Assembly (NCBI GenBank): GCA_030691075.1
Contig: JAUYFI010000022.1
Coordinates: 34,063 to 98,062, forward strand
Reading direction: 5' to 3'
Source: Sulfurisoma sp.
GTDB taxonomy: Bacteria > Pseudomonadota > Gammaproteobacteria > Burkholderiales > Rhodocyclaceae
DNA: 64,000 nucleotides
Part shown: positions 49,592 through 55,027 of the stretch, piece by piece
Position numbering within the stretch: the stretch's first letter is position 1
How the letters are laid out: every line of letters starts with the position of its first letter
Notes under the pieces: model-generated
What the model saw: the letters and a program-made list of their open reading frames with translations, nothing else
Told to the model about the DNA's origin: nothing
The model's database searches: none
Made by a program: the position numbers and the translations under genes

Positions 49592-49869
49592 GGATCTATC
49601 GCGGCTTCATGCCGCCGTGTCGCCATCCGCTACGGCGAGGAGAGCGTTTCTTGCTCGACCGCCTTGTAGCGCAGTTGCTTCATCAGCGCTGACTTTTTAC
49701 GGTTGATTTTGCTTTGCCGGGTCTCGCCCCGGCGGGCGAGGTACTTTCTTGCTGCGCGGCAAGAAAGTACCCAAAGAAACGCGCCCCGCTGCCCCGGCCT
49801 GCGGCTTCCCTCGCTCCGGACTATCGTGCCGGCCGGACACCCCCGGCCCGACAGCCCTCCACTCGGCGG
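49592..49869. other. Mobile-element debris downstream of tldD
   Basis: About 280 bp without an intact gene. Contains the perfect palindrome GTACTTTCTTGC-TGCGCG-GCAAGAAAGTAC (49741-49770) followed by CCAAAGAAACGCG, a repeat type I associate with insertion-sequence neighbourhoods, and a GC-rich unit around 49790-49869 that interrupts the IS91-like remnant. Confidence 0.6.
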
Positions 49870-50097
49870 GCCTGCCAGCAGCTTCGCCCGAAAGACCTTG
49901 GCCAGTGCCTTATGGTTGAACAGATAGCCGCCCTCGGCCTTGCCCCGCCGCTTGGTTCGCCATCGGTTTTGCTCGCCGTCGACCGCCGCCGCCGGCATGA
50001 CCAGATGAACATGCGGGTGGAAATCCAGCCGGCGCGTGTGCGTATGCAACACCGCCATCGCCCCGGGCGTGCCGCGCAGGCGGCGATGGCCATGGGC
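49870..50097 (-). pseudogene. IS91-family (Y2/HUH) transposase remnant
   Basis: About 75 codons of similarity: GAMAVLHTHTRRLDFHPHVHLVMPAAAVD contains the HUH (HVH) motif of Y2 transposases, followed by YLFNHKALAKVFRAKLLAG. Both the N-terminal part and the Tyr-bearing C-terminal part are missing; the 5' side ends near the IS1595 left repeat and the 3' side runs into unrelated repeat DNA. Confidence 0.8.
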
Positions 50098-50139
50098 ATC
50101 CGGATCGGAGGATCGGGATGGATGACTGCATGCCCACAC

Positions 50140-51189
50140 GGGGTATCCCTTTAGCTCCACAGATGGCAAAATTGGCCCATGGGCGCCCCAGAGCTACAAC
50201 CGATAGGTGGAACGGATTATCCAACAACTTGGGTTCAATTCCTTGACTGGTTTCACTCTGAGCAAGCATGTCGCGATTACCTGGAGAAGCTGCGGTGGGC
50301 CGATGGTTTGATCTGCCCGAAATGCGGAGCATCAAGCGAAGTCGAGCGTATCAGTCGCGGCAGATTAATTTGTCCGGCATGCCGACATCAGACCACGGTA
50401 ACGGCGGGGACTATTTTCGACAAGACACGCACTGAGCTTCGTGTCTGGTTCGCTGCCATTTGGTACATCACCAACCAGAAGCACGGAGTCAGCGCATTGG
50501 GGTTGCAGCGTGTGCTTGGGCTGGGGAGCTACGAAACCGCTTGGACAATGCTGCACAGGTTGCGACGCGCGATGGTTCGACCTGGCAGGGAATTGCTTCA
50601 CGGAGAAGTGGAAGTCGATGAGACCCACCTCGCCCTCACCGACCGGAAAACGCCAGTTTCCGCGGTCGGTCGCAAGAGCAACACCACAAAAGCGCTCGTT
50701 GTCATTGCCGTCGAAATGCTTCAACCCAAAGGGTTCGGGAGAATTCGGATTCAGCAAATTGCGAATGGCGACTATGAGCACCTGATGCCTTTTATCAAGG
50801 AGTCTGTTCGTTCGGGGGCGATTATTCACAGTGATGGGTCTGCCGCCTACAGAAAACTTGACGATGCCGGATATGGACACCGTCGCACGGTTCATCTTGG
50901 GTCGGACACGCCAGCCCATGAATCGATGCCAGGCGTTCATCGGGTCGCCGCATTGCTGCAACGCTGGATGATGGGGACTCACCATGGGGCCGTCCAACCA
51001 AGTCAATTGGACTACTACCTCGACGAATTCGTATTTCGCTTCAATCGCCGAACTTCGCGATCACGGGGACTACTGTTTTATCGCCTGCTCCAGCAGACCG
51101 TCATGACGAAGCCTGTGACTTACGGAAAAATCGTAGAAATTCCCAAAAAACCTGGAAATTGAATTCCTGTGGAGCTAAAGGGATACCCC
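50140..51189 (+). mobile_element. IS1595-family insertion sequence, complete
   Basis: 1050 bp bounded by perfect 23-bp inverted repeats (GGGGTATCCCTTTAGC... at 50140-50162 and its complement at 51167-51189) and carrying one intact transposase. No target-site duplication is visible in the flanks (GCCCACAC on the left, ATGTGTCG on the right). The left flank is IS91-like debris and the right flank a truncated brnT, which suggests a deletion or recombination at one end after insertion. Confidence 0.93.
50179..51162 (+). CDS. IS1595-family transposase
   Basis: 327 aa. N-terminal zinc ribbon (CPKCGASSEVE...CPACRHQ), a short helical stretch, then the ISXO2-like DDE domain: EVEVDETHLAL (first D), IHSDGSAAYRKL (second D) and a C-terminal RFNRRTSRSRG. 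No frameshift or stop, so probably active. Codon use is visibly less GC-biased than in the flanking genes. Confidence 0.94.
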   Translation: MGAPELQPIGGTDYPTTWVQFLDWFHSEQACRDYLEKLRWADGLICPKCGASSEVERISRGRLICPACRHQTTVTAGTIFDKTRTELRVWFAAIWYITNQKHGVSALGLQRVLGLGSYETAWTMLHRLRRAMVRPGRELLHGEVEVDETHLALTDRKTPVSAVGRKSNTTKALVVIAVEMLQPKGFGRIRIQQIANGDYEHLMPFIKESVRSGAIIHSDGSAAYRKLDDAGYGHRRTVHLGSDTPAHESMPGVHRVAALLQRWMMGTHHGAVQPSQLDYYLDEFVFRFNRRTSRSRGLLFYRLLQQTVMTKPVTYGKIVEIPKKPGN

Positions 51190-51665: not shown

Positions 51666-52775
51666 CTACCCCAGCCTTGCCCGCAGGAAAAAGTCGGCGC
51701 CGACGACACGGCGTTCCAGCACATCCAGCCGCCGCGCACCCGCCAGCTCGGTGAGCTCGGGCAGATCGAACATGCCGCGCGCGGCATCGCCGAGCAGCAG
51801 GGGCGCCTGATAGATCAGCAGTTCGTCCACGCAGCCTTCCCGCAGCAGCGAGCCGTTGAGCCTGAAACCGGCCTCGGCCATGACCTCATTCGCACCGCGG
51901 CGGCCGAGTTCGGCCAACAGCGCCGGCAGGTCGACCTTGCCCTGGGCGTTGGGCAGTACCACGACATCGACACCGCGCGCTCGCAGTTGAGTGGCCTTCT
52001 CCACCTGCTCGACGGCGCAGGCGACGAGCGCATTGCCGCCATCGAGCACCGCCGCGTCGAGCGAAATTTCCAGCCGGCTGTCGACCACCACGCGCAGCGG
52101 CTGGCGCGGCGTGTCGATGTCGCGTACCGTCAGGCGCGGGTTATCGTCGCGCACGGTGCCGATGCCGGTGAGCATCGCGCAGCTTTGCGCGCGCCAGGCG
52201 TGGGCGTCGTGACGCGCCTCGGGGCCGGTGATCCATTGCGACTTGCCGTTGTCGAGCGCGGTCTTGCCGTCGAGGCTGGCGGCAACCTTGAGGCGCAGCC
52301 AGGGCCGGCCGCGCGTCATGCGCGAGACGAAGCCGGGGTTGAGTTCGCGCGCCTCGGCTTGCATCAGGCCGCTCTCCGTCACGATGCCGGCAAGTTCGAG
52401 CCGGGCCAGGCCCGTGCCCGCGACCAGCGGATTGGGGTCGCGCATCGCGGCGACCACGCGGCTGACGCCGGCGTCGATCAGCGCGTCGGCGCAGGGCGGC
52501 GTGCGGCCGTGGTGCGAGCAGGGTTCGAGGGTGACGTAAGCCGTGGCGCCACGCGCCGTCCCGCCAGCACCGACTTTTTGCGCCGCCACGGCCGCCAGTG
52601 CGTTGACCTCGGCGTGCGGCTCGCCCGCCTTCTCATGCCAGCCCTCGCCGATCACCGCACCGTCGCGCACGATGACGCAGCCGACGCGGGGGTTGGGCGT
52701 CGTGGTGTAAAGACCGCGCCGCGCGAGTTGCAGGGCCCGCGCCATGAACTCGTGATCGGCCGCCGAGAAGCTCAT
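51666..52775 (-). CDS. ribD: Bifunctional riboflavin biosynthesis deaminase/reductase
   Basis: 369 aa. Deaminase domain with zinc ligands HAEVNAL near residue 53 and PCSHHGRTPPCADAL; reductase domain with KVAASLDGKTAL and GIGTVRDDNPRLTVR. Catalyses the second and third steps of riboflavin synthesis. An insertion AAQKVGAGGTARGA, encoded by the dispersed repeat, lies between the two halves of the zinc site, just before TAYVTLEPCSHHG. Downstream of nrdR in a glyA-nrdR-ribD run. Confidence 0.95.
   Translation of the reverse strand: MSFSAADHEFMARALQLARRGLYTTTPNPRVGCVIVRDGAVIGEGWHEKAGEPHAEVNALAAVAAQKVGAGGTARGATAYVTLEPCSHHGRTPPCADALIDAGVSRVVAAMRDPNPLVAGTGLARLELAGIVTESGLMQAEARELNPGFVSRMTRGRPWLRLKVAASLDGKTALDNGKSQWITGPEARHDAHAWRAQSCAMLTGIGTVRDDNPRLTVRDIDTPRQPLRVVVDSRLEISLDAAVLDGGNALVACAVEQVEKATQLRARGVDVVVLPNAQGKVDLPALLAELGRRGANEVMAEAGFRLNGSLLREGCVDELLIYQAPLLLGDAARGMFDLPELTELAGARRLDVLERRVVGADFFLRARLG
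52552..52586 (-). repeat. Dispersed KVGAGGTA repeat, short form (in ribD)
   Basis: In the coding direction GCGCAAAAAGTCGGTGCTGG+CGGGACGGCGCG, read as AQKVGAGGTAR. One mismatch to the murE copies over the shared 25 bp. Confidence 0.8.
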
Positions 52776-52782
52776 GACACTC

Positions 52783-52835
52783 GAGCGCAGCGAGCCGACA
52801 GTCTCCTCCCCCGCGAGGGGGAGGCCGGGAGGGGG
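52783..52835. repeat. Hairpin-rich repeat unit between ribD and nrdR
   Basis: CGAGCGCAGCGAGC followed by the hairpin CCTCCCCC-GCGA-GGGGGAGG and GGGAGGGGGCGGG. It shares its opening and layout with the insertion in the murB 5' end. Confidence 0.65.
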
Positions 52836-52839
52836 CGGG

Positions 52840-53316
52840 TCATGTTGTGCGGGGACGCCGTACGCGAGGTTTTTTAACCTCGCGTATGGCGTCGGAGAAC
52901 TCGTCGAGATCCTCGAAGTTGCGATAGACCGAGGCGAAGCGGATGTAGGCGACCTTGTCGAGTTTTTTCAGTTCGCGGATCACCAGTTCGCCGATGCGGT
53001 CGGAGGCCACCTCGCGCTCGCCAAGGGTGACGAGCCTTTCCTCGATGCGGTCGAGCGCGGCGTCGACGCTGTCGGTGGTCACCGGGCGCTTCCTCAGCGC
53101 CAGCATCATGCTGGCCTTGAGTTTTTCCCGGTCGTACTCGGTGCGGCTGCCGTTCTTCTTGACCACCAGCGGCAACTGCAACTCGACCCGCTCGTAGGTG
53201 GTGAAGCGCTTGTCGCAGGCAAGGCAGCGACGACGACGGCGAACGGTGTCGCCGTCCTCGTTCTCACGGGTGTCCACCACCTGCGTGTTCGGCTCTGCGC
53301 AGTAGGGACATTTCAT
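52840..53316 (-). CDS. nrdR: Transcriptional repressor NrdR
   Basis: 158 aa. Zinc ribbon CPYC...[12 protein letters not shown], then the ATP-cone domain ([28 protein letters not shown]). Represses ribonucleotide reductase genes in response to ATP/dATP. The last codons (after [11 protein letters not shown]) are encoded by a perfect 11-bp hairpin, TACGCGAGGTT/AACCTCGCGTA at 52861-52886. Confidence 0.96.
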
Positions 53317-53389
53317 TTCAGTTGCTCCACCGCGTTGCGCGCGACCCGCGACGCAGGAAACGTCTCGTTCGTTGGGGATCGGCGCGCGT

Positions 53390-53487
53390 CAAGGGTGGCG
53401 GGTAGCCGACGCCGCTCATGTCACCCGGACCGGGCTGCGCCCGGCCCTCCTTCTTTACTTCGCTATGTCGGCTACCCGCCACCCTTG
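53390..53487 (+). repeat. Structured repeat unit 1 between nrdR and glyA
   Basis: Perfect 21-bp outer stem (AAGGGTGGCGGGTAGCCGAC with GTCGGCTACCCGCCACCCTT), then CCGCTCATGTCACCCGG, an inner GC hairpin (CCGGGC-TGC-GCCCGG) and CTCCTTCTTTACTTCGCT. The blocks between the stems are nearly identical in unit 2, while the outer stem differs. Confidence 0.85.
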
Positions 53488-53541
53488 GCGGGGCACGCCG
53501 GTGCTGCTGTACCGCCGCAAACCAACGGCGCTTGCCGATCG

Positions 53542-53637
53542 GGCCGGTGGGGTGCTCTGCGCAGCGAAGTAAAGAAGGAGGCGGCGGCCGAAGGCCGGCG
53601 CCGGGTGACATGAGCGGAGCAGAGCACCCCACTGGCC
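53542..53637 (-). repeat. Structured repeat unit 2 between nrdR and glyA (inverted)
   Basis: Opposite orientation to unit 1. Outer stem GGCCRGTGGGGTGCTCTGC (19 bp, one mismatch), with the same internal blocks on the minus strand: CCGCTCATGTCACCCGG and CTCCTTCTTTACTTCGCT around a different GC hairpin. The 54 bp between the units show no feature; no gene was found in the 358-bp nrdR-glyA gap. Confidence 0.85.
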
Positions 53638-53674
53638 TGATCGCGCACCAAACCACGAGTTTCACTTCAGTCGA

Positions 53675-54922
53675 TCAATCGCCATAAACCGGAAACTTCT
53701 TGCACAGCGTGGCAACTTCACCGCGCACCTTCGCCAGCACGGCCTCGTCGCTGGGCGCATCGAGCACGTCGGCGATCAGTTCGGCAACGGTCTCGGCCTC
53801 GATCTCGGTAAAACCGCGCGTCGTCATGGCCGGCGTGCCGATGCGGATGCCGGAGGTAACGAAGGGCTTCTGCGGATCGTTGGGGATGGCGTTCTTGTTA
53901 ACGGTGAGATGTGCCTTGCCCAGCGCGCCTTCCGCATCCTTGCCGGTGATGTTCTTGGCCCGCAGGTCGACCAGAAAGACATGGCTTTCGGTGCGCCCCG
54001 AGACGATGCGCAGGCCGCGCGACTTGAGCACCTTGCACATCACCTGGGCGTTGTCGATCACCTGTTCCTGGTAGTTCTTGAATTCCGGCGTCATGGCCTC
54101 CTTGAAGGCCACGGCCTTGGCGGCGATGACGTGCTCCAGCGGGCCGCCCTGCAGGCCGGGGAAGATGGCCGAGTTGATGGCCTTCTCGTGCTCGGCGCGC
54201 ATCAATATCAGGCCGCCCCTGGGGCCGCGCAGGGTCTTGTGGGTGGTCGAGGTGACGACGTCGGCGTGCGGTATCGGGTTGGGGTAGAAGCCGGCGGCGA
54301 CGAGGCCGGCGTAGTGGGCCATGTCCACCATGAAGATGGCGCCGACGGCCTTGGCCACCTTGGCGAAGCGTTCGAAATCGATCTTCAGGGCATAGGCCGA
54401 GGCGCCGGCGATGATCAACTTCGGCTTGTGCTCGTGCGCCAGTTTCTCCATCGCATCGTAGTCGATCTCCTCCTTGGCGGTCAGGCCATAGGGCACGACC
54501 TTGAACCACTTGCCGCTCATGTTGAGCGCCATGCCGTGGGTGAGATGGCCGCCTTCGGCCAGGCTCATGCCGAGGATGGTGTCGCCGGGCTTGAGGAAGG
54601 CGAAGAACACGGCCTGGTTGGCCTGGGAGCCGGAATTGGGCTGGACGTTGGCGCAATCGGCGCCGAAGAGCTTCTTGGCGCGGTCGATGGCCAGTTGCTC
54701 GGCGACGTCGATATGCTCGCAGCCGCCGTAGTAACGCTTGCCGGGGTAGCCCTCGGCGTACTTGTTGGTGAGCTGGGAGCCCTGCGCCTCCATGACCGCG
54801 TGGGAAACGTAGTTCTCCGAGGCGATCAGCTCGATGTGGTCTTCCTGGCGCTTGTTTTCGGCCTCGATCACGGCCCACAGTTCGGGATCGGTCTTGGCGA
54901 GTGAATTCTTCTTGGAAAACAT
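53675..54922 (-). CDS. glyA: Serine hydroxymethyltransferase
   Basis: 415 aa from ATG 54922 with GGAG 6 nt upstream; the TTG at 54934 is rejected. [46 protein letters not shown], the PLP lysine in [13 protein letters not shown] near residue 230, and [15 protein letters not shown]. Interconverts serine and glycine and supplies one-carbon units. Followed on the same strand by nrdR and ribD. Confidence 0.97.
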
Positions 54923-55027
54923 TTTTTGCTCCAAAAAATGTTTCAGTGCAGGCTAATGCGCGTAGCGCGTTACGCCGAAACCAAAACATGGCGGACTTCC
55001 GTCAAATGAGGGAAAACCGGCATTTTA

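What the first reader, a model, noticed from the sequence alone, without database searches (positions are those of the whole stretch)
53390..53637. Head-to-head structured repeats with covarying outer stems between nrdR and glyA
Two inverted units share unpaired blocks CCGCTCATGTCACCCGG and CTCCTTCTTTACTTCGCT and each has an inner GC hairpin, but their outer 19-21-bp stems have different sequences that both pair almost perfectly. Conserved loops with compensatory stems are what a structured RNA or a structure-recognised DNA element looks like, not a simple REP palindrome.
Basis: partly seen in the sequence, partly recalled or inferred. Interest (0 to 1): 0.75.

Follow-up and report, generated by a model that had tools for sequence, protein, structure and literature searches.

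The report
Paired folding repeat at operon junctions
Two inverted folding sequences between the genes glyA and nrdR are one copy of a roughly 350-base repeat scattered through this genome and some distant relatives; its shape rather than its letters is preserved, it sits at joints between genes, and it looks like a small mobile DNA whose mover is unknown.

Summary
The two units are one head-to-head pair, the core of a repeated element of about 350 bp. The window's genome (a Sulfurisoma-like betaproteobacterium) holds 25 units; pairs recur at nearly fixed spacing. Related pairs occur patchily in Rhodocyclales, Burkholderiales and Xanthomonadales. Outer stems differ in sequence but keep pairing (37 of 38 pairs with two-sided changes; all controls far lower), and the "loops" covary too. 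Mismatches are strongly one-sided: on the purine strand G·U/T outnumbers A·C about 10 to 1, equally for the A and the B unit, although these lie on opposite strands. So each unit's purine strand is the folding strand, which argues against one mRNA and for a DNA hairpin in each half, as in BIME/REPIN elements. It is not a RAYT-linked REP: copies occur in genomes without a detectable Y1 transposase, no unit lies beside one, and no GTAG/CGTC tag is conserved. In Sulfurisoma full copies sit between a stop codon and the next start codon and usually carry that gene's Shine-Dalgarno; several orthologous sites are empty. Best reading: a non-autonomous, REPIN-like mobile element with an unusual non-Watson-Crick core and an unknown mobiliser. 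RNA roles are not excluded.

The parts
53317..53670 (-). whole element as seen in this genus, filling the glyA stop to nrdR start interval (read on the operon strand: CTGAAGTGAAAC ... B ... A ... GGAGCAACTGA)
   Evidence: full-length alignment of copies; genus-wide matches run over query 1013-1373 = window 53312-53672; empty orthologous sites
53387..53490 (-). unit A; strand given is the purine strand inferred to fold (outer stem, covarying internal loop, inner hairpin)
   Evidence: CM match G000:C178:87449-87552; R strand RNA MFE -69.2 versus -63.8 kcal/mol
53537..53642 (+). unit B; strand given is the purine strand inferred to fold
   Evidence: CM match G000:C178:87599-87704; R strand RNA MFE -75.7 versus -63.8 kcal/mol
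53412..53428 (+). conserved block 1 of unit A (Y strand CCGCTCATGTCACCCGG)
53447..53464 (+). conserved block 2 of unit A (Y strand CTCCTTCTTTACTTCGCT)
53601..53617 (-). conserved block 1 of unit B
53563..53580 (-). conserved block 2 of unit B
53491..53536 (.). central linker between the units (variable sequence, near-constant length)
   Evidence: inter-core spacing 100-119 bp in 142 of 168 counted pairs
53314..53328 (-). nrdR start codon with element-borne Shine-Dalgarno, GGAGCAACTGAAATG on the operon strand; this motif recurs at other copies in front of unrelated genes
53353..53362 (+). A-side terminal motif GCAGGAAACG (consensus GCATGAAACG)
   Evidence: alignment
53659..53670 (-). B-side terminal motif CTGAAGTGAAAC (consensus CTRRNATGAAAC), next to the glyA stop codon
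   Evidence: alignment, list
53675..54934 (-). glyA, upstream gene
52840..53316 (-). nrdR, downstream gene

Best explanation
A non-autonomous repeated DNA element, REPIN/BIME-like in logic. Two inverted units form its two halves. In each, the purine strand (5'-GCGAAGTAAAGRAGGAG-hairpin-CCGGGKGACATGAGC-3' inside a long outer stem) folds as single-stranded DNA, on the top strand in one half and the bottom strand in the other. A trans-acting enzyme, not identified, recognises the folded core (shape plus non-Watson-Crick internal loop) rather than the outer stem sequence, and copies or moves the element. In Sulfurisoma the element sits at operon stop/start junctions and carries a Shine-Dalgarno, so both neighbouring genes stay usable. 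Shown here: repeat status, pairing, covariation, folding strand, stop-to-start placement, empty sites. Inferred: ssDNA as the folding molecule, mobility, the existence of an enzyme, and harmlessness.
For: 25 units in this genome, 14 or more matches in other genomes such as G003, G001, G032. Inter-core spacing is 100-119 bp in 142 of 168 counted pairs across genera. Covariation: own genome 29 of 38 pairs with two-sided changes, 186 cells versus 64 in shuffles; 150 matches from other genomes 37 of 38 pairs, 1430 cells versus 410, slid controls at most 310. Strand asymmetry: outer stem, Y orientation, G.T 54 versus A.C 511 over 313 units; A units 5 versus 44, B units 5 versus 51; A.C exceeds G.T in each of the 20 columns k=3-22. 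R strand is the better RNA folder in 298 of 313. Internal loop couplings: C/C 284, A/T 41, other 4 units; in 21 of 115 elements the two units differ in type while each matches internally; column 32-75 AT 290, GC 36, other 3. Context: tandem 59, convergent 20, divergent 6, inside an ORF 1. Empty orthologous sites where gene 1 stop and gene 2 start nearly touch. A derivative with both hairpins lost but both ends kept lies in front of another gene.
Against: No mobilising gene was found; Y1/RAYT genes are undetected in three carriers and never lie beside a unit. No clean target-site duplication or movement event was seen; several positions are shared within the genus, so copies may be old. Strand asymmetry tells which strand folds, not whether it is DNA or RNA, and cells are not independent. 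G.U-rich helices and a purine internal loop are also typical of RNA. The gene caller is a heuristic.
Confidence: 0.5

Rival explanations
1. Two structured RNAs, one from each unit, transcribed outward on opposite strands (small RNAs or RNA-level protein-binding sites).
For: RNA-like features: wobble-rich helices (about 8% G.U on the R strand), tandem GA/GA next to Watson-Crick pairs replaced by full pairs in variants, G.G/A-U coupling.
Against: No sigma-70-like promoter and no terminator at the end of the purine-strand hairpins in the window (promoter types other than sigma-70 not covered); B's folding strand is antisense to the operon; no Rfam family reaches its gathering score. No expression data.
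Confidence: 0.2
2. An intercistronic mRNA element (processing, attenuation or translational control) acting in the operon transcript.
For: In Sulfurisoma it lies between stop and start of co-directional genes and carries the Shine-Dalgarno.
Against: The operon mRNA holds B in the non-folding Y form, yet B is as strongly constrained on the other strand (5 versus 51); elsewhere 20 of 86 classified pairs lie between convergent genes.
Confidence: 0.12
3. An ordinary MITE: a deletion derivative of a transposon with double-strand-acting (DDE) transposase, the palindromes being passive.
For: Similar ATGAAAC motifs at both ends and solo derivatives; CTRRNATG at both junctions could be target duplication.
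Against: Does not explain one-strand mismatch bias or loop-loop coupling; no autonomous relative was seen in the loci examined.
Confidence: 0.13
4. The same family as the Beta-proteobacterial repeat element (BRE) of Bordetella, hence partly known.
For: BRE is a high-GC repeat of about 90 bp in Bordetella, Polaromonas, Rhodoferax, Delftia and one Azoarcus, with mobile-like features (PMC3110155).
Against: BRE is described as direct tandem repeats with no or few bases between them, found by sequence identity above 70%; here units are inverted pairs with variable stems. The BRE sequence is not in the text that could be read.
Confidence: 0.1

Closest known systems
REPIN / BIME (REP doublets) with TnpAREP/RAYT
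   Same: inverted pair of imperfect palindromes with a spacer, repeated, mostly intergenic, strand-specific hairpin with conserved irregularities; singlets also occur (PMC3116915, PMC8266576)
   Different: units about 105 nt instead of 20-40; outer stem sequence free to vary; 17-nt internal-loop blocks conserved; no GTAG tag; no Y1 transposase detected in three carrier genomes; stop/start placement with a Shine-Dalgarno in Sulfurisoma
Integron attC sites
   Same: variable-sequence hairpin recognised on one folded strand (general knowledge; mentioned in PMC8266576)
   Different: carrier genomes G167 and G334 have no integron integrase above cut-off; no attC boxes (GTTRRRY/RYYYAAC) seen in the conserved blocks by eye; head-to-head pairs rather than arrays
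Beta-proteobacterial repeat element (BRE)
   Same: multi-copy, high-GC, mainly intergenic repeat of betaproteobacteria
   Different: about 90 bp direct tandem repeats; sequence could not be compared
MITE-type repeats such as Correia/NEMIS, ERIC, RUP, BOX
   Same: short non-autonomous intergenic elements with inverted structure (general knowledge; list in PMC3110155)
   Different: two independently folding units whose stems vary while internal loops covary

Membership tests
REPIN/BIME mobilised by RAYT | inverted doublet of palindromic units at characteristic spacing | tested here: met
   142 of 168 counted pairs at 100-119 bp spacing
REPIN/BIME mobilised by RAYT | RAYT (Y1 transposase, PF01797) in the same genome | tested here: not met
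   none detected in G000 (90% complete), G001 (98%) and G032 (99%), which carry the element; present in some other carriers
REPIN/BIME mobilised by RAYT | units flank a RAYT gene | tested here: not met
   no unit in 33 fetched loci around Y1 genes
REPIN/BIME mobilised by RAYT | GTAG (or CGTC) tag at the hairpin foot | tested here: not met
   GTAG in 8 (5' side) and 9 (3' side) of 325 units; CGTC in 32 and 46
REPIN/BIME mobilised by RAYT | strand-specific folded recognition | tested here: inconclusive
   one-strand mismatch bias in both units fits; no binding data
attC / integron | integron integrase (TIGR02249) in carrier genomes | tested here: not met
   all 7 carriers in the relatives set have one, but complete carriers G167 and G334 do not
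attC / integron | R and L boxes with GTTRRRY/RYYYAAC | tested here: inconclusive
   not seen by eye in the conserved blocks; no dedicated attC search was run
known structured RNA (Rfam 15) | match reaching a family's gathering score | tested here: not met
   only far-below-threshold miRNA hairpin models
BRE of Bordetella | sequence similarity to published BRE | not testable with these tools
   sequence only in a figure and supplementary list
MITE of a DDE transposon | ends shared with an autonomous transposon | tested here: inconclusive
   no recurrent neighbouring protein emerged from a rough clustering of ORFs on the named contig stretches, but whole genomes could not be read
MITE of a DDE transposon | target-site duplication | tested here: inconclusive
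   both junctions resemble CTRRNATG but rarely match each other exactly

The most novel reading that the evidence does not exclude
A previously undescribed class of mobile DNA: paired single-stranded hairpins recognised by shape and a non-Watson-Crick core, moved by an enzyme unrelated to RAYTs or integron integrases, that enters operons at stop/start junctions and brings its own ribosome-binding site.
Probability: 0.25. Interest if true: 0.8.

Novelty: new variant of a known kind. Interest (0 to 1): 0.6.

Why it matters
It gives a compact case in which selection on a fold, and on which strand folds, can be read from sequence alone in hundreds of copies. It separates the inverted-doublet design from the RAYT transposase thought to explain it, and it makes a test possible: what enzyme acts on this hairpin. 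In Sulfurisoma it also offers a natural experiment on insertions at operon joints that bring their own translation start signal.

Tried and rejected
Protein-coding reading of the blocks (SEVKKEG ... PGDMSG): rejected, because hairpin lengths and block variants break the frame (sequence). Rfam: nothing at threshold. Autonomous copy: ORFs near the elements were clustered and the two widest-spaced pairs (L250, L258) noted; L250 holds a Fic-like gene between separate copies rather than a transposase. RAYT: rejected as a requirement. Integron integrase: first looked correlated (7 of 7 carriers versus 38 of 61 genomes), then two complete carriers without it were found. Viral contigs: no exact pattern match. 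Plasmids: only Variovorax megaplasmids and a short Burkholderia match, without annotation. Kink-turn: considered, but the position next to the tandem GA is a covarying Watson-Crick pair. First count of pair types used a position one base off and is replaced.

Full report
Observation. The window holds two inverted units between nrdR and glyA, each with a long outer stem, two conserved blocks and an inner GC hairpin. Unit A is about 53387-53490, unit B about 53537-53642. Both fold far better than shuffled sequence as RNA or DNA.

Further copies. A loose search of the window's own genome (G000, 3.39 Mb in 193 contigs) gives 25 distinct units; the covariance model R1 built from them finds the same 25 loci. 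Nine pairs share a spacing of 117-118 bp between block starts. The model hits 7 of 61 relatives, among them G003 with 30 and G032 with at least 60 matches, while one genus mate, G002, has none (counts include some opposite-strand hits). Contig lengths identify G003 with Sulfurisoma sediminicola BSN1 and G032 with Ca. Nitricoxidireducens bremensis MAG5, so the window's genus is Sulfurisoma or its GTDB equivalent (inference). The distribution is patchy: 12 of 399 genomes of the order by exact pattern with no control match, and 4 of 369 in the class by model, a lower bound because only 10 candidates per genome were scored.

The pair is the unit. Across genera the two inner block ends lie 100-119 bp apart in 142 of 168 counted head-to-head pairs (duplicate loci not removed from this count).

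Covariation. In the own-genome alignment 29 of 38 pairs show changes on both sides (186 cells, shuffles 64; slid controls at most 37). In 150 matches from other genomes it is 37 of 38 (1430 cells, shuffles 410, slid controls at most 310). That second alignment was fitted to the model, and includes some opposite-strand matches, so it leans towards the structure. The internal loop covaries too. Column 32-75 is A-T in 290, G-C in 36 and mismatched in 3 of 329 units. The pair GTC[x]CCC / CTCCT[y]C is C/C in 284, A/T in 41 and other in 4; in 21 of 115 elements the two units are of different type while each is matched internally, so the coupling is not just linkage along the element. Variants such as GCGAATG with TTTATTTCGC or GTTCGTG with TTTACCTCAC keep pairing. 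On the purine strand the common form reads GCGAA/UGAGC, a tandem GA/GA next to a Watson-Crick pair, replaced by full pairs in variants; this reading of the loop is inference.

Which strand folds. In the outer stem (20 positions, 313 distinct units), read in the Y orientation, G.T mismatches number 54 and A.C 511; T.C 88 and G.A 30. On the complementary purine (R) strand these become G.U/T wobbles and G.A pairs, which a folded single strand tolerates. The bias is in the same direction in every one of the 20 columns and has the same size in A units (5 versus 44) and B units (5 versus 51) of the Sulfurisoma family set. R is the better RNA folder in 298 of 313. Cells share ancestry, so the column-wise and A/B agreement matter more than the totals. 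Since A and B lie in opposite orientation, no single transcript holds both in the R form. A strand-biased mutation process cannot be excluded from mismatch counts alone, but it would have to act on opposite strands in the two units.

Place. A heuristic gene caller puts 59 classified pairs between co-directional genes, 20 between convergent, 6 between divergent and 1 inside an ORF. In Sulfurisoma the alignment of full elements shows a fixed orientation: upstream gene stop, CTRRNATGAAAC, unit B, linker, unit A, then GGAGCAACTGACATG or similar at the downstream start. By a strict motif, 15 of 27 A-first full elements of the family set carry this start-side motif; most of the exceptions are in G032. 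Orthologous sites without the element were found in G001, G002 and G004 for several loci; there the stop and start are close or overlapping, as in GGCTAATATG (L292) or CACTGAAATG (L296). In the window's own locus G002 has 9 bp between the genes. One derivative, L334, keeps both ends and the Shine-Dalgarno motif but has lost both hairpins. Exact target duplications are not clear.

Mechanism. Inverted halves, one-strand folding, conserved irregular core, intergenic repeats and singlets match the logic of BIME/REPIN elements, where TnpAREP binds only the REP strand and the irregularity in the stem matters (PMC8266576; PMC3116915). Membership fails: Y1 transposases are undetected in G000, G001 and G032, no unit lies in 33 loci around Y1 genes, and GTAG/CGTC tags are rare. 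G000 is only 90% complete, so absence there is weaker than in G001 and G032. Integron integrases were considered because they act on folded strands; they are missing above cut-off in two complete carriers. The mobiliser is therefore unknown, and ssDNA as the folding molecule is an inference.

Known or not. Rfam gives nothing at threshold. Literature searches in an open-access library found no description by sequence or by combination of terms. The Bordetella BRE (PMC3110155) is the one published candidate relative; its organisation differs and its sequence could not be read here. Most subscription journals are not in that library.

Noticed in passing
window 52773-52845: A second repeat: this stretch beside the ribD-like gene matches dozens of places in all four genomes of the genus.
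   Followed up: no
window 50179-51162 and 49630-50169: An ORF that looks like an IS1595-type transposase next to a broken IS91-like transposase fragment (by eye, not scanned).
   Followed up: no
L334 (G000:C135:32700-34000), about 549-690: Derivative of the element that has lost both hairpins but keeps both ends and the GGAGCAACTGAAATG start motif, in front of what looks like a urease gene.
   Followed up: partly
G000, G001, G003, G013, G020, G032, G048: All seven element-carrying relatives have an integron integrase above cut-off (38 of 61 genomes do overall); the element-free genus mate G002 does not. Two other complete carriers lack it.
   Followed up: partly
Hydrogenophaga loci L089 and L113: Elements there lie between two oppositely facing terminator-like hairpins with T/A runs, unlike the stop/start placement in Sulfurisoma.
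   Followed up: no
L250 (G032:C2:100-3000): A Fic-like gene lies between two copies, one of which has an arm replaced by another repeat.
   Followed up: no
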